Virus record (IMG/VR): IMGVR_UViG_3300045539_000179
Coordinates: 1 to 20,434 of that record
Strand: one strand, 5' to 3'
From: a virus
DNA length: 20,434 bases
In this document: positions 1-9,914 of the stretch, in pieces
How the letters are laid out: each line of letters opens with the position of its first letter
How positions within the stretch are numbered: position 1 is the stretch's first letter
Position numbers and translations under genes: made by a program
Notes under the pieces: generated by a model
The model's database searches: none
Told to the model about the DNA's origin: nothing
The model's input: only the letters and a program-made list of their open reading frames with translations

Positions 1-122
1 AAGGTTTAATAATATTGTCTGGATTAGGGACTAAGTCGGACATAAAACAAAAACGGTGTGAGGCGTTGCCATTAGGTGAGTCGATGAAACCCGAAGCTCC
101 GTACCCTTTAGGGTCGGAGTAG
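1..122 (+). CDS. tnpB: TnpB RNA-guided nuclease, C-terminal end (partial, 5' end outside window)
   Basis: The reading frame beginning at base 3 is open from the window edge to a TAG at 120-122 and encodes 39 residues. They include EALPLGESMKPEAP, a tail typical of IS200/IS605-family TnpB proteins, where the last codons overlap the guide-RNA scaffold at the right end of the element. TnpB is an RNA-guided DNA endonuclease with a RuvC fold that promotes retention and spread of its element. The RuvC catalytic residues would lie upstream of the window and cannot be checked, so activity is unknown. The stop codon sits directly after the right-end hairpin (97-119), as expected when coding sequence and non-coding RNA share DNA. 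The assignment rests on the tail and on the matching DNA end; confidence is good although only a fragment is visible. Confidence 0.8.
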   Translation, partial: GLIILSGLGTKSDIKQKRCEALPLGESMKPEAPYPLGSE

Positions 123-127
123 TTCAC
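1..127 (+). mobile_element. Right end of an IS200/IS605-family (tnpB) element
   Basis: The boundary is placed after TTCAC at 127 from the position of the conserved right-end hairpin. The left end, any tnpA transposase and the target-adjacent motif all lie outside the window. The sequence immediately outside continues an open coding frame (128-370), so the element appears to have inserted within a phage gene. A bare IS605-type element and an IStron (an element combined with a self-splicing group I intron) both fit what is visible. Confidence 0.7.
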
Positions 128-145
128 AGTGGTGAAAATATTATA
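30..145 (+). ncRNA. TnpB guide RNA (reRNA/omega RNA) scaffold and guide
   Basis: The segment has the look of an IS605-type right end. A hairpin pairs CTCCG (97-101) plus ACCC (103-106) with GGGT (111-114) plus CGGAG (115-119) around a TTTA loop, with one bulged T, and the end motif TTCAC follows at 123-127. In TnpB systems this end is transcribed as the scaffold, and the next 16-20 bases outside the element form the guide. Here the guide would begin at 128 with AGTGGTGAAAATATTATA. The 5' boundary of the RNA is not visible, so 30 is only a rough limit. The scaffold overlaps the tnpB coding end. Confidence 0.72.
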
Positions 146-370
146 AATTGTAAAAAAAATGAATCAGATATATTTGTACCATATTTTATTAATCCAGAAG
201 TATTCAATGAATATAATACTGAATATAATAAAATTAATAATGAAGATATTGAAGATTTAAAAATTTATAAAATTACAGAAGAAGAAGTTGTTAGTGCTGA
301 AAAAAATAATAAAATTACTAGTGAAGATTTACTAGTTTTACATCAAGTAGGTTACTATACATTCGATTAA
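128..370 (+). pseudogene. 3' fragment of a gene interrupted by the TnpB element (function unknown)
   Basis: From the element boundary an open frame runs SGENIINCKKNESD... to ...VLHQVGYYTFD and stops at TAA 368-370, about 80 codons. No in-frame ATG exists anywhere in it. Extended upstream, the frame runs through the scaffold region and meets a stop at 77-79. The composition (acidic and Asn/Lys-rich, like the rest of the genome) looks coding, and a terminator follows at 392-426. The simplest reading is the C-terminal part of a phage gene whose first part lies beyond the TnpB element. If the element is an IStron, splicing could restore the product and this would be a 3' exon rather than a broken gene. 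I do not recognise the protein family. Confidence 0.6.
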
Positions 371-391
371 TTTATTTTAATAATATTTTAT

Positions 392-426
392 AAAAAATAA
401 CCATCTATAATAGGTGGTTATTTTTA
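392..426 (+). terminator. Rho-independent terminator
   Basis: A 14-bp stem pairs AAAAATAACCATCT (393-406) with AGGTGGTTATTTTT (412-425), with one G-U pair and a five-base loop. The right arm ends in a T-run. It follows the interrupted gene ending at 370. Confidence 0.8.
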
Positions 427-459
427 TTTTAAAGCTATTTAATTGAAATGTTATGATTT

Positions 460-867
460 ATGTCAGTAGATAAAAGAGTTGGTAGTGATAATATAACTTG
501 GTCACAAATTGATAAATATATTTATTTAGGTACTATATTAATTGGTGTTTTTATGTATATATCAAGTATAAAAACCGATGTCGAAGTAATGAAAAATGAC
601 ATAAATAATATGAAAGATATGATTAAGGAATTACATAACCAACATATTAAAGAAAATGGACCAATAGGGTTTTATTATGATGTAAATAATGATTTAAAGA
701 AAAATTGTTTTATAAGTAGTGTTAGTAAGTTTACAAAGATACCGCCAATAAAAAATAAAGATAAAAAGGTTGAATCAAGATTTTTATGGATAGATAATAG
801 AAAAAAATTAATTGACGGAACAGATTATTATGATTTTTTTAATGACAAAAAACCGTTACAAAGTTAA
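460..867 (+). CDS. Small membrane-anchored protein with coiled coil, unknown function
   Basis: A 135-residue protein. A short polar N-terminus is followed by one hydrophobic segment at about residues 17-37 (IDKYIYLGTILIGVFMYISSI). Next comes a charged, heptad-like stretch at about 38-65 (VEVMKNDINNMKDMIKELHNQ) that suggests a coiled coil, and then a soluble domain of about 70 residues rich in Lys and Asp. There is no cleavable signal peptide. The topology would fit a membrane-tethered phage accessory or lysis-associated protein, but no motif proves that. The start at 460 was chosen because the alternative ATG at 453 is out of frame. It lies 33 bases after a terminator, so it probably has its own promoter. 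Its stop codon lies inside the loop of the terminator at 849-880. Confidence 0.65.
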   Translation: MSVDKRVGSDNITWSQIDKYIYLGTILIGVFMYISSIKTDVEVMKNDINNMKDMIKELHNQHIKENGPIGFYYDVNNDLKKNCFISSVSKFTKIPPIKNKDKKVESRFLWIDNRKKLIDGTDYYDFFNDKKPLQS

Positions 868-880
868 TTGCAACGGTTTT
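849..880. terminator. Bidirectional terminator between convergent genes
   Basis: AAAACCGTT (849-857) pairs with AACGGTTTT (872-880). A T-run follows on the + side, and an A-run precedes on the left, which reads as a T-run on the minus strand. It sits between the 135-residue + gene and the minus-strand helicase, whose 3' ends face each other, so one hairpin can end both transcripts. Confidence 0.75.
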
Positions 881-911
881 AAAGTAAAAAAGGTTACATT
901 ATATATTTAAT

Positions 912-2414
912 TTATTCAATTAAACTTAATTTATCTATAATAGTTGTATTTTTTTCAAATGAATCAATACTTTCTTCACTATTAATTTTTTTAAATGCAG
1001 AATCATCGATTTTAATATTATTATCTTCTTTAATAACTAAATCTTCATTAAAATTAGCATGATGTGAATCATCAATTTTAATATCTAATGTATCATTATT
1101 AAATAAAATATCTTCCCAAACCCATCCTGCTCTTGCAAAACGACATTTATTAATAACAATATTAATTTGGTTATTATTTAATTGATTAATATCTCTACCA
1201 AGTGAAATAACCATATGTGCTTTTTTCAATCTTTCAACTGAACCACCACAATGATTCATATCTAATAATCTAACATTATTAGCTTCTTTTTTTGCTTGAA
1301 TAGCAGCATACATAGCAATATCAAGTTCTTCACATAAAGATTCTACTTTCTTAACAACTTGTTCTTGTCCAAACCACTTGTCATTACCTCTATCATCAGG
1401 TTCAAGACAATCAATATAGTCAAGTACAACTAAATCAATTTTACCTCGCTTATCTTCTTCTTTTTTAATGAATTTCTTTAATTTTGTTGGTGTTGTATCA
1501 TCAGATAATCTAACAATTTTAAGTTTACCAACAACAGGACTTTTCTTTAAGTCTTCAATTCTGCTTTTAGCTTTTTCTTTTTGTTTAGATAATTGTGAAG
1601 ATGGAATACCAAGCACCTTTGCATAAATTTTTCTTCTAATATCGTTTTCTTTACCCTCTAATATGATATGTAAAACATTTTTACCTAACATATAATTATT
1701 TGCAGCAATTAAAGACAACATAGTTGATTTACCAATACCTGGCGATGCAAGTATTAATGCAAACTCACCTCTATCAATACCACCGTTAACCTTATTATCA
1801 ATTTCCTTTATACCAGTACCAATTGGTCTTCTTGAATCTTCTGATAATACCTCATCAATCGATTCAAAAATATCTTTACCATGTCTTTGTGGTTGTCCAA
1901 TATCAATAATAGCTTTATACCTTTCAGATAATGCAATAATAGTAGACTCATCAACAATTCCTTTTTCTAACTTTTCTGTTGATTCTCTATTCGCTTTTAA
2001 GAACTCTTGTTGTTTAACAAATGTTAATGCTTGTTCTTTAACAAACTTTCTATCTTCATTAATTTCACCTGACTTATACTTAACACCAAGATTTCTAATA
2101 CTAATTAATCTTGCTTCAATTTCTTTTTTCTCAATATCATTTGAAATCTCTGTTTCCGTTAGAGTATAGATATTATCTATATTTGGTATATTATTGTATT
2201 TCTTATAATAATCTTTTATTAAAACCATTATTCTCCTCATATCCATTGTTTCAAAATATGATGGTTCTAAATAACGTATAATTTCTTCAAAGAAGATATT
2301 TTTTGTATTTTCATTAATATTATTAGGTAATAATAATTCATAAACTAATTTTGTTTGATAGTTTAATCCTAATTTACCCATATGTTGTTTCACTATTTCA
2401 TTCTCAATAGACAT
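912..2414 (-). CDS. Replicative DNA helicase, DnaB/T4 gp41 type
   Basis: A 500-residue protein with the RecA-like ATPase core of hexameric 5'-3' replicative helicases. Walker A is ASPGIGKST (about 223-231). A region around 248-262 (HIILEGKENDIRRKIYAK) fits the segment after it. Walker B is DLVVLDYID (about 327-335), a sensor glutamine lies in AAIQAKKEA (about 370-378), and the late conserved segment is GGSVERLKKAH (390-400). Residues 1-170 form a helical N-terminal domain. Length is close to that of T4 gp41. It would unwind the parental duplex at the phage fork and work with primase, which is not in the window. The C-terminal 60 residues are acidic and low in complexity. The start is preceded by an A-rich leader without a Shine-Dalgarno sequence. 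A strong hairpin (2457-2487) separates it from the gene upstream, so it may rely on readthrough or on an unrecognised promoter. Confidence 0.9.
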   Translation of the reverse strand: MSIENEIVKQHMGKLGLNYQTKLVYELLLPNNINENTKNIFFEEIIRYLEPSYFETMDMRRIMVLIKDYYKKYNNIPNIDNIYTLTETEISNDIEKKEIEARLISIRNLGVKYKSGEINEDRKFVKEQALTFVKQQEFLKANRESTEKLEKGIVDESTIIALSERYKAIIDIGQPQRHGKDIFESIDEVLSEDSRRPIGTGIKEIDNKVNGGIDRGEFALILASPGIGKSTMLSLIAANNYMLGKNVLHIILEGKENDIRRKIYAKVLGIPSSQLSKQKEKAKSRIEDLKKSPVVGKLKIVRLSDDTTPTKLKKFIKKEEDKRGKIDLVVLDYIDCLEPDDRGNDKWFGQEQVVKKVESLCEELDIAMYAAIQAKKEANNVRLLDMNHCGGSVERLKKAHMVISLGRDINQLNNNQINIVINKCRFARAGWVWEDILFNNDTLDIKIDDSHHANFNEDLVIKEDNNIKIDDSAFKKINSEESIDSFEKNTTIIDKLSLIE

Positions 2415-2456
2415 CTTTTTATTTTTATTTTAGGTGGAATTTTTAACTTTAATTTA

Positions 2457-2487
2457 AATCTTGGACAGTATTATACTGTCCAAGATT
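2457..2487 (-). terminator. Strong hairpin between the 204-residue gene and the helicase gene
   Basis: A perfect 14-bp inverted repeat, AATCTTGGACAGTA / TACTGTCCAAGATT, with a three-base loop. It lies 13 bases after the stop of the upstream minus-strand gene. Read on the minus strand it is followed by TTTAAATT, not an unbroken T-run, so termination may be partial. Confidence 0.7.
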
Positions 2488-2500
2488 CACTAATATATTA

Positions 2501-3115
2501 CTATATAATTGGTTCTGCTGTCATTTTTTCCTTCTGTTCAGCATTGAATTGTCTGATTGTATCAATATCAAAACCATGACGATTTCTAATATTATATTCA
2601 CCCCACATAAAATCAGAATCTTTTTGTTTTATATGTGCTTCAATATATTGAACAATATCATCAAAATAATTTGTTAAATCCGATGAAAATCTAGCATTAG
2701 GATTATAATTCTTAATACAAAAATTTCTCTCAATAACATAATTATCATTATAATATAAAATGTATTTAAAATTTTCATCAGTATTTAAATAATATCCATT
2801 TGTATTATTTAAACTTTCTTGCTGAGAAGTTAAAGGAACTCTAACACTCTTGTCTTCACTATTTGTTAAACCAAAAAATTTAACACCATCTTTATAAGTT
2901 TTTAAATACTTATCAATAGTTAAATTACTATCCTTACTAGAAAGTATGTCTCTAAACCCTTTTATCATGTCATTAGCAACATCTTTTAAATTTAAAGTCC
3001 TAGACTTCACATTATAGACATCTGCTCTAAAAACCCTCTCTAATATAGGATTATCGTTTAAGTATAAACCAAATTTATATTGGTCTTTTACAAAAGAATT
3101 AATTTGTTCACTCAT
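2501..3115 (-). CDS. Conserved-looking phage protein of unknown function (204 aa)
   Basis: A 204-residue soluble protein with no signal peptide, membrane segment or nucleotide-binding motif. It is rich in Asn, Asp, Tyr and Lys, with mixed alpha/beta character and a charged C-terminus (FNAEQKEKMTAEPII). It lies between the flap nuclease and the helicase in a replication cluster, and its size is similar to T4 gp59, the helicase loader. That is only a positional hint; I do not see a gp59 signature. It has its own promoter (3151-3185) and is followed by a strong hairpin, so it can be expressed as a single-gene unit. Start at 3115 is preceded by an A-rich leader. Confidence 0.7.
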   Translation of the reverse strand: MSEQINSFVKDQYKFGLYLNDNPILERVFRADVYNVKSRTLNLKDVANDMIKGFRDILSSKDSNLTIDKYLKTYKDGVKFFGLTNSEDKSVRVPLTSQQESLNNTNGYYLNTDENFKYILYYNDNYVIERNFCIKNYNPNARFSSDLTNYFDDIVQYIEAHIKQKDSDFMWGEYNIRNRHGFDIDTIRQFNAEQKEKMTAEPII

Positions 3116-4728: not shown

Positions 4729-4922
4729 GATTTATAATTTTTATTAAAATATTTATTGTAAATAACTACACCTAATATAAGTGTTATTATTAACCCCACT
4801 AACAAATATAATGGTAAAAATACATAAAACCAAGAAAAATATGTGTTTATTATAAGTTTATAGTAAATTAATATTAGTGTTAGTTGACCAAAGAAGAACG
4901 GAATATAGAATTGTAATTTCAT
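4725..4922 (-). CDS. Small two-segment membrane protein (65 aa)
   Basis: A 65-residue, very hydrophobic protein with two likely transmembrane helices (about residues 5-27 and 32-55) and a short basic tail (YNKYFNKNYKS). It overlaps the homing-type nuclease gene upstream and the zinc-ribbon gene downstream by four bases each, both ATGA arrangements. Function is unknown; size and topology alone do not separate a holin-like protein from an inner-membrane accessory factor. Confidence 0.65.
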   Translation of the reverse strand: MKLQFYIPFFFGQLTLILIYYKLIINTYFSWFYVFLPLYLLVGLIITLILGVVIYNKYFNKNYKS

Positions 4923-5971
4923 GAGGGTATGTATTTAGATTTAAACTTAGTTTCATATCTTTCAGTAAATTTTATATCACCAGAATTATATAATGATAAT
5001 ATTTCTTCGCTACTTAATTTTTCAGGTGTTATAATTTCAAATGTATAATTATTTTCTTTACAATATTTTTTTACACCTTCTATCTTATTTAATACTTTTG
5101 GGGAGTTAATTAAAGTTGAAGGTTTTATTTCAATAATTTTATTACCATTAATAACAAAATCAGGAAAATAATTTCTTTTTATACCTTCATAATCTACATA
5201 AGGTATTTTATATTTTTTTAATTCACCATTTTCCCATGAAAGATTTTCTTTTACGATAACATTAACCATGTAAGATAATTCAAATAAACTTCTAAAAAAC
5301 CAACCATTTGGAATATAGTGACCACTCCAACCGTTTCCTGAACCTTGTGGTGATGGTTTTCCAAACATTGGATTATTTTCGCCAGATGAATTATTTTTTT
5401 GAGTATTAATCCATTCTTCGTATTTAGTTGTACCAGACTCTACTCCGAATTTTTCAATCCATGTTTCTTTAAAACCACCAGTTCTACCGTAATTAGGGTT
5501 ATTTTCACCAGAAAATAGTGAACTTAATCTTTCTTTATTCTCATTTGATTTTAAATAATCAATATATTTTTGTTTCTTTTCACTAGGATTAGACCAGCTT
5601 TCTTTCATTTGTTTTTTTATCTCATCAGTATGTGTTTTACCAAAAAATGGATTATTTTCACCTTTAAATTTATTGCTATTATATAATTTTTTACATTCAA
5701 TACATGGAAAATTTTTACAATTATTAATACAAATTACACCTGCTTTTTCATATTTTTTTATTTCAAATTCTTTAATATAATTTTTTAAAGTAGTGTAGTT
5801 TCTAAGATTTTTAATTATTATATCAATTTCTTCATCATTATATCTTTTATTTTTATATCTTTTTGTTTTTAAAATTGTAATTATATTTTTTTCTTCTCTA
5901 ATACAATTGATACAAATATCTTTGGATTTATTTGAAATTATTATTTCATTACATTTTGTGCAGTTTTTCAT
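4919..5971 (-). CDS. Homing-type endonuclease: zinc ribbon, NUMOD3 repeats and PD-(D/E)XK nuclease domain
   Basis: A 350-residue modular protein. The N-terminus has a Cys4 knuckle (CTKC, CINC, residues 4-23), and a second Cys cluster lies at 81-93. Three NUMOD3-like DNA-binding repeats follow: GENNPFFGKTHT (about 104-115), GENNPNYGRTG (155-165) and GENNPMFGKPSPQGSG (197-212). The C-terminal part has FRSLFELSYM with Glu231, then YFPDFV with Asp271 and EIKPS with Glu281 and Lys283, the layout of a PD-(D/E)XK nuclease. NUMOD3 repeats are typical of phage homing endonucleases. The gene starts directly after the uvsX terminator and is coupled by a four-base overlap to the small genes behind it, which is unusual for a freestanding homing gene. 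Its exact target is unknown. Confidence 0.8.
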   Translation of the reverse strand: MKNCTKCNEIIISNKSKDICINCIREEKNIITILKTKRYKNKRYNDEEIDIIIKNLRNYTTLKNYIKEFEIKKYEKAGVICINNCKNFPCIECKKLYNSNKFKGENNPFFGKTHTDEIKKQMKESWSNPSEKKQKYIDYLKSNENKERLSSLFSGENNPNYGRTGGFKETWIEKFGVESGTTKYEEWINTQKNNSSGENNPMFGKPSPQGSGNGWSGHYIPNGWFFRSLFELSYMVNVIVKENLSWENGELKKYKIPYVDYEGIKRNYFPDFVINGNKIIEIKPSTLINSPKVLNKIEGVKKYCKENNYTFEIITPEKLSSEEILSLYNSGDIKFTERYETKFKSKYIPS

Positions 5972-8522: not shown

Positions 8523-9914
8523 TTATTTTAAAATTTCACTTATTAAATTATATCTTTCATTATTTAATGTTGTTAACATTATTCCTTGTGGAGTGAAATC
8601 ACCACCAGATAACAAACTTTGTATTATTGAAGGTGATGCACCGCTAACCAATGCTACATCTTTTGATTTTGTTGTAGTTGGTATATTTCCTACTCTACCA
8701 TTAACATTCCAGAAACATAATTTAGGTGCAATATAACCTTTTTCATTAAACTTTATATTTATATCATCATAAATGAAATTATTTCTAGTACATTCATTAA
8801 ATTCCATATCTGAAATAATTAATAATGTTGTAGGTAAATCTTCTTGTTTTACATTTTGTGCGATAGCATAATCTAATATTAAATTATAAGTTTTTTCAAT
8901 ATCAGTTGAACCTCCCCAGTGTGCATTAATTAATGAATTAAATTTTTCTATAATATCACCTTTTAGATGTTCAATAGTTGGTGTTGTACTGAATGTTAAT
9001 ACAGTATCTTTAAAAGCACTATTATTACGTTCAGAAAGATATACTCCTAATGATATTGATATATCCATAGGTAAGCCGTTCATTGAACCAGATACATCAC
9101 ATACAGGTAGAAATGATTCTTTACTATCTTTAATGTAATTAGGTAAATTTTCCCATTGTACTTTAATGGCATCTAATTCATTAGTGTTATAATTACTTTC
9201 TTTATATTTTTGATATAATTGATATGGGAATATTGCTGATGCATTAACCTTTACTTCACCATTTTTAGCTGCTTCAATAAAAGCACTAAATCTTGTTTCA
9301 TCAAATTTATAGAATACTTTTGAGTTTCTTTTAAAAGAAAGTGATGGAACTTGTGAATAATTTATTGAATCAAAGTTTTTTGAACATATTTTTTGTTCAA
9401 TACCATTTTTTGATAATTCAACTAATATTTTTCTTAATTCCTTTGGGGTTGTAGATAATTCTTTAAATAAGTTATTAAATACAGGTCCTTTTCTTGGTAA
9501 CCATTTTGCTAATAATATATTTTTTTCGTCTATTAATTGTTTACGAATATATTTAAAATCAATATTTTTTAAATTTTCATCTTTAATATAATCTTTCCAA
9601 TAACCATATTCTGGTATTAGAACACTTATTTTTTTATATAAATCATTATTAATGATTGAAATGTGATTTAATATGATATTAAAAAATCTTCTTTCACCAA
9701 TACCACCTCTAATATCTCTTGACCAGAATAATAATTTCATCGCTAAAATATTATCAGATGCATAAGCTTCATCAAATAAATTTGTTATATCTCTTTCTGA
9801 GATGTTTCTAGATGCTCCTGCGATAAAAAATAAATCAACTAATTTATCAGTTGAAGATTTTAATGTTAAAGCACCGTTATTAGTTGTTGTAACGTTTGTA
9901 AGAAAATTTTTCAT
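8523..9914 (-). CDS. DUF2828 protein: helical repeat region plus von Willebrand A domain (TROVE/Ro60-like architecture)
   Basis: A 463-residue protein. The N-terminal region carries DUF2828 hallmarks: TTNNGALTLKSSTDKLVDLFF (about 10-30), the motif RDIRGGIGERRFF (66-78) and PEYGYWKDY (101-109). The C-terminal half is a von Willebrand A domain with a complete metal-ion site: DVSGS (273-277), Thr337 in HWGGSTD and Asp369 in IISDMEF. FWNVNGR and VALVSGASPSIIQSLLSGG follow near the end. Ro60/TROVE RNA-binding proteins share this layout of helical repeats followed by a vWA domain; a direct RNA-binding role here is inferred. The gene lies between the sigma factor and SSB genes and has a leader of more than 200 bases containing its own promoter and a structured RNA (9945-10118). 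The protein seems complete. Confidence 0.82.
   Translation of the reverse strand: MKNFLTNVTTTNNGALTLKSSTDKLVDLFFIAGASRNISERDITNLFDEAYASDNILAMKLLFWSRDIRGGIGERRFFNIILNHISIINNDLYKKISVLIPEYGYWKDYIKDENLKNIDFKYIRKQLIDEKNILLAKWLPRKGPVFNNLFKELSTTPKELRKILVELSKNGIEQKICSKNFDSINYSQVPSLSFKRNSKVFYKFDETRFSAFIEAAKNGEVKVNASAIFPYQLYQKYKESNYNTNELDAIKVQWENLPNYIKDSKESFLPVCDVSGSMNGLPMDISISLGVYLSERNNSAFKDTVLTFSTTPTIEHLKGDIIEKFNSLINAHWGGSTDIEKTYNLILDYAIAQNVKQEDLPTTLLIISDMEFNECTRNNFIYDDINIKFNEKGYIAPKLCFWNVNGRVGNIPTTTKSKDVALVSGASPSIIQSLLSGGDFTPQGIMLTTLNNERYNLISEILK

What the first reader, a model, noticed from the sequence alone, without database searches (positions are those of the whole stretch)
1..147. TnpB and guide RNA carried by a phage, with readable guide
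The TnpB tail, the overlapping scaffold hairpin and the TTCAC end are all visible, so the guide can be predicted as the bases from 128. Because the guide copies the flank of the insertion, the nuclease would cut phages that lack the element at this site, a homing-like advantage in mixed infections.
Basis: partly seen in the sequence, partly recalled or inferred. Interest (0 to 1): 0.7.

Follow-up and report, generated by a model that had tools for sequence, protein, structure and literature searches.

The report
Phage IS605 element with guide-RNA nuclease
The left end of this phage contig is the tail end of a small jumping element that carries an RNA-guided DNA cutter and has landed in a dispensable phage gene; the kind of element is well known, but related phages let its target rule be read and make its possible spread between phages testable.

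Summary
Observation confirmed. Window 1-127 is the right end of an IS200/IS605 element: the last 39 codons of tnpB, overlapping guide-RNA helices supported by covariation, and the TTCAC end; the guide starts at 128. An identical 127-base end in another virus record (L010) belongs to a whole element with Y1 tnpA and a 398-aa TnpB with its catalytic D/E/D. The overlap is exactly 127 bases, the largest k-mer of JGI assemblies, which suggests a multi-copy element. It interrupts an accessory 165-codon gene: whole in phage L005, absent in L006. The motif before the left end is TTTAT at all 6 sites where I could read it. For a decayed sister copy (L045), phage L006 shows the empty site: TTTAT plus 30 of 30 matching bases. 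The homing idea is only partly supported: at the window's own site the single uninterrupted allele found (L005) has TTCAT and 4 mismatches in 20, so that phage is probably not cut, and no exact empty allele turned up. TnpB-driven spread is already reported for plasmids. Of some interest: 11 of 22 close relatives lack tnpA, yet nearly all keep the nuclease triad. New member of a known kind.

The parts
3..122 (+). 3' end of tnpB: last 39 codons and the stop; the rest of the gene is cut off by the contig end
   Evidence: 127 of 127 bases identical to the end of the element in L010, whose TnpB is 398 aa
1..127 (+). visible part of the guide-RNA (reRNA/omegaRNA) scaffold, overlapping tnpB, ending with the element's right end
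   Evidence: five helices, 16 of 32 pairs with changes on both sides in 18 aligned right ends
96..120 (+). terminal hairpin of the right end
   Evidence: stem sequence differs between relatives while pairing is kept
123..127 (+). TTCAC, last bases of the element
   Evidence: L010 ends exactly here; the same end in 18 of 22 close relatives (one, L030, ends in TTCAT)
128..147 (+). predicted guide (first 16-20 bases of the right flank)
   Evidence: position relative to the boundary; in ISDra2 about 16 flank bases end the reRNA (PMC8612924, passage); no RNA data here
128..370 (+). 3' half (codons 86-165 and stop) of the interrupted accessory gene, no stop inside
   Evidence: whole 165-codon gene in L005; absent in L006

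Best explanation
The first 127 bases are the right end of an IS200/IS605-type insertion sequence (left end, divergent Y1 tnpA, tnpB, right end) inserted into an accessory gene of an AT-rich phage that carries DnaB-type helicase, RecA-like and 5'-3' exonuclease genes. The element inserts after TTTAT. [quoted passage not shown] When TnpA peels the element out and leaves a donor joint (TTTAT plus flank), TnpB with its RNA cuts that joint, so that recombination with an element-bearing copy restores the insertion. The same reaction could act on a co-infecting phage with an empty TTTAT allele. Shown: anatomy, boundary, insertion inside a gene, intact TnpB in the record with the identical end, the TTTAT rule, one exactly matching empty allele at a sister site. 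Inferred: that the window's own copy is whole, transcription, cutting, restoration, and any spread between phages.
For: Identical 127-base end on a complete element with Y1 tnpA and tnpB; homology to ISDra2 TnpB at E 1e-77 with D/E/D aligned; covarying RNA helices; whole gene in L005 and precise continuation of homology at the boundary; TTTAT before the left end at 6 of 6 readable sites; empty site in L006 with TTTAT and 30 of 30 bases equal to L045's flank; ISDra2 model from PMC8612924 (passages).
Against: Most of tnpB and the left flank are outside the window. The L005 allele has TTCAT and 4 mismatches in 20. No exact empty allele of the window's site or of the L015/L016 site was found. The left-end motif was readable in only 7 of 23 loci scanned. 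The L045 copy has TTCAC, not TTTAT, at the aligned distance before its left-end-like sequence (a TTTAT lies ten bases further out).
Confidence: 0.85

Rival explanations
1. The window's own copy is a decayed or internally deleted relic, like L045, with no nuclease of its own; only its last 127 bases look intact.
For: Only 127 bases are visible; L045, in the same phage group, is such a relic with the adjoining scaffold sequence 97% identical to the window.
Against: 127 of 127 bases equal the end of a whole element in L010, terminal hairpin included, which L045 has lost; the contig break at one k-mer is what a copy identical to others over a longer stretch would give.
Confidence: 0.15
2. A chimeric join: a bacterial or other element end wrongly assembled onto a phage contig.
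For: The element end is exactly one 127-mer at a contig end, where wrong joins are easiest.
Against: The join falls exactly at the element's last base and, on the phage side, directly after a TTCAT in the homologous gene of L005, one base from TTTAT; L010 is itself a virus record with the whole element; L045 is a copy in the same phage group; 20 close relatives in virus records against 2 in species genomes.
Confidence: 0.04
3. A domesticated, nuclease-dead TnpB (TldR type) acting as an RNA-guided repressor in the phage.
For: Phage-encoded TldRs exist (PMC13418256, passages).
Against: D183, E267 and D349 are present in L010 and in 19 of 20 close viral loci in one frame; L010's copy has tnpA and both ends.
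Confidence: 0.02

Closest known systems
ISDra2 (IS200/IS605) TnpB with its reRNA, Deinococcus radiodurans (PMC8612924, passages; PDB 8bf8, 8h1j)
   Same: TnpB fold family (E 1e-77), D/E/D triad, guide RNA from the 3' end of tnpB and right end, guide taken from the flank, motif at the left end, Y1 tnpA
   Different: TTTAT instead of TTGAT; carried by a phage; tnpA and tnpB divergent in L010
TnpB gene drive of IS200/605 in plasmids (PMC11870625, abstract and passages)
   Different: Shown there experimentally for plasmids; here phages, and no experiment
TldR, nuclease-dead TnpB of phages (PMC13418256, passages)
   Same: TnpB relative with guide RNA carried by a phage
   Different: TldR has lost the nuclease; this family keeps it
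Phage homing endonucleases (recalled; no call defines them)
   Same: Would also spread by cutting the empty allele
   Different: Protein recognition of a fixed site, whereas the guide here changes with each insertion

Membership tests
IS200/IS605 element with tnpB | Y1 (HUH) transposase tnpA in the element | tested here: met
   In L010, which has the identical right end: PF01797 Y1_Tnp, E 1.1e-33. Outside the window for the window's own copy.
IS200/IS605 element with tnpB | TnpB with OrfB_IS605 and TNB domains | tested here: met
   L010 TnpB: PF01385 2.5e-26, PF07282 2.9e-22; window has the last 39 codons
IS200/IS605 element with tnpB | Subterminal hairpins at both ends and a short target motif left of the element | tested here: met
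   Right-end hairpin 96-120 in the window; left-end hairpin in L010; TTTAT at 6 of 6 readable sites
TnpB-reRNA guided nuclease | Intact RuvC D/E/D | tested here: met
   L010: D183, E267, D349; not visible in the window itself
TnpB-reRNA guided nuclease | Guide matches the empty site next to the motif | tested here: inconclusive
   Met at the sister site L045/L006 (30 of 30 with TTTAT); at the window's site only L005, 16 of 20 with TTCAT
TnpB-reRNA guided nuclease | Guide-RNA expression and DNA cleavage | not testable with these tools
   Needs RNA and enzyme work
Homing-like drive against element-free phages | Element-free alleles are cut and converted in mixed infection | not testable with these tools
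   No population or infection data; analogy with PMC11870625 only
TldR (nuclease-dead TnpB) | Inactivated RuvC | tested here: not met
   D/E/D present

The most novel reading that the evidence does not exclude
A largely viral TnpB clade with a TTTAT motif has become, in several phages that lost tnpA, an RNA-guided homing nuclease: it is kept because it cuts element-free phage genomes in mixed infections, and its target is reset at each new site. The window's element would be a member of that clade in a T4-like phage.
Probability: 0.25. Interest if true: 0.68.

Novelty: new member of a known kind. Interest (0 to 1): 0.4.

Why it matters
It gives a natural phage system in which RNA-guided homing can be tested: a whole element, its motif, its guide, an uninterrupted relative with mismatches, and a sister site whose empty allele matches exactly. 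If TnpB drives phage elements as it does plasmid ones, it would join homing endonucleases as a force in phage-phage competition and would help explain why TnpB genes without a transposase persist in viruses.

Tried and rejected
Exact guide in all viral contigs: 4 hits, none with the motif, none homologous. With up to 3 mismatches in 11 records, the window matched itself and those same 4 records matched; the other 6 had none. Relatives of the interrupted gene: only L005's record, searched once with the L005 protein and once with the window's half. Relatives of the gene interrupted in L010, to read that copy's right flank: only L010's own record and three weak partial matches, so that flank stays unknown. 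Empty allele for the L015/L016 site: the only two hits are those two element-bearing records. Rfam: nothing for the guide RNA; one match below its gathering score elsewhere in L012 was taken as chance. Papers: eight answered searches, seven of them on TnpB; I saw no paper on TnpB homing between co-infecting phages in those listings, but the library lacks most subscription journals, and Meers et al. 2023 is not held. PMC11437467, PMC11656645 and PMC11061315 were looked at in passages only and carry no weight here. I considered that L010 and the window are the two sides of one copy; L005's gene runs on in frame upstream of the site into 85 codons, and that stretch does not match L010's left flank, so I take them as two insertions, although recombination between two copies is not excluded.

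Rows dropped: alignment A1 has 18 right ends; left out were L012 (same as the window), L014 (same flank as L013), and L021, L027, L029 and L031 (no right-end motif found). One search also listed chance TAGTTCA matches, which I ignored. In one search dN/dS was printed only for pairs with dS below 1.8.

Full report
What is there. The window is a complete virus record of 20,434 bases. Its first 127 bases differ from the rest: G+C reaches 55% at 61-120, against 10-38% in the bins from 121 to 3000. Frame 3-119 with the stop at 120-122 is a TnpB C-terminus, a hairpin lies at 96-120, and TTCAC at 123-127. The finding's coordinates are right.

The whole element. An exact search of viral contigs for the last 23 bases gave one other record, L010. 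The first 127 bases of L010 are the reverse complement of window 1-127, all 127 identical. L010 holds the full element: tnpB 6-1202 (-), 398 aa, and a divergent tnpA 1283-1684 (+). Pfam gives OrfB_IS605, Cas12f1-like_TNB and HTH_OrfB_IS605 for the first and Y1_Tnp for the second. TnpB aligns with ISDra2 TnpB (PDB 8bf8, 8h1j) at E 1e-77, and D183, E267 and D349 fall in the catalytic columns. The L010 left end has a hairpin and is preceded by TTTAT.

Why the contigs break here. The overlap is exactly 127 bases, and L010 ends at the element's last base. JGI metaSPAdes assemblies use k up to 127 (PMC10604447, passage). One k-mer of element followed by flank is what a graph fork at the end of a repeated element leaves behind: at least two right flanks. 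This is inference, because I could not confirm that both records come from one assembly. A merely polymorphic insertion would break at the first flank base instead.

The interrupted gene. From the element's end on, the window matches L005 (IMGVR_UViG_3300034107_001273) at 89% over 4.4 kb. There the gene is whole, 165 codons, and the insertion point lies between codons 85 and 86. The 3' half left in the window has no stop inside. L006, also 89% alike over 4.2 kb, lacks the gene, so it is dispensable in this group.

The motif and the empty sites. In 7 of 23 loci scanned (6 distinct sites, L015 and L016 sharing one), the left end reads TTTAT, 8-9 bases, GCGTAAAACC. L045 is a decayed copy in the same phage group: tnpB mostly deleted and the terminal hairpin collapsed. 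L006 carries the empty allele of that site: TTTAT followed by 30 bases identical to L045's right flank, 92% over 400. So in this phage group the guide position is the flank and TTTAT is the adjacent motif. At the window's own site the L005 allele reads TTCAT and differs at guide positions 5, 13, 16 and 20. That phage is therefore a poor predicted target.

The guide RNA. Across 18 right ends (17 distinct), five helices give 96.3% standard pairs and 16 of 32 pairs change on both sides; 0 of 500 shuffles reach either value, and slid versions fall to 28-43% paired. Part of the region is also coding, which does not by itself create paired changes.

The family. TnpB relatives: 35 loci in viral contigs, 20 of them at 64-100% over most of the protein, one being L010's own record; 34 in the genome collection, 2 of them at 77% over most of the protein. 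One of those 2, L052, sits beside a terminase-like gene and has an HNH gene between its left end and tnpB; the other is a 3-kb contig. In annotated phages 388 of 50,697 records match, all below 60%. Of the 20 close viral loci, 19 keep D/E/D in one frame; L031 is split between two frames. A right end was found in 18 of 22 close loci. tnpA is absent from 11 of 22 close loci as fetched, and on a FastTree tree tnpA-less members are interleaved with tnpA-bearing ones. tnpB is under purifying selection (pairwise dN/dS 0.04-0.26 for pairs with dS under 1.8, one identical pair apart), though that cannot be dated to after the loss of tnpA, and TnpB-only elements mobilised in trans are an ordinary alternative (recalled).

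How it most likely works. By the ISDra2 model (PMC8612924, passages), excision leaves TTTAT plus flank, TnpB with its RNA cuts it, and repair from an element-bearing copy restores the insertion. Replicating phage genomes in one cell are many copies, as with plasmids, where TnpB has been shown to act as a drive (PMC11870625, abstract and passages). Homing between phages is therefore plausible and not shown.

Verdict.

Noticed in passing
L052:3385-5211: A TnpB element (77% to L010's) with an HNH endonuclease gene (PF13395, at its cut-off) in the place of tnpA, next to a terminase-like gene, in a contig binned as Sedimentibacter.
   Followed up: partly
L013, L014, L017, L018, L023, L025, L027, L028, L029, L031, L052: 11 of 22 close TnpB loci have no tnpA within the fetched DNA; 10 of these 11 keep D/E/D in one frame, L031 being split.
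   Followed up: partly
L010:5585-7822: The same record also carries an IS607-like pair: a resolvase-type recombinase and a second TnpB-like protein with a TNB domain.
   Followed up: no
L045:1-400: A relic of the element with tnpB largely deleted but about 100 bases of guide-RNA scaffold kept at 97%; whether a guide RNA without the terminal hairpin is still used in trans is open.
   Followed up: partly
window 4919-5971 (-): NUMOD3 plus TnsA-like endonuclease protein, a homing-type gene beside the RecA-like gene; bases 5022-5678 have no match in L005, while L008 has the gene at 97%.
   Followed up: partly
window 8523-9914 (-): 463-aa protein matching DUF7788 and DUF2828 (E 2.6e-41 and 9.1e-27) with a weak vWA match, inside a phage replication region.
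   Followed up: no
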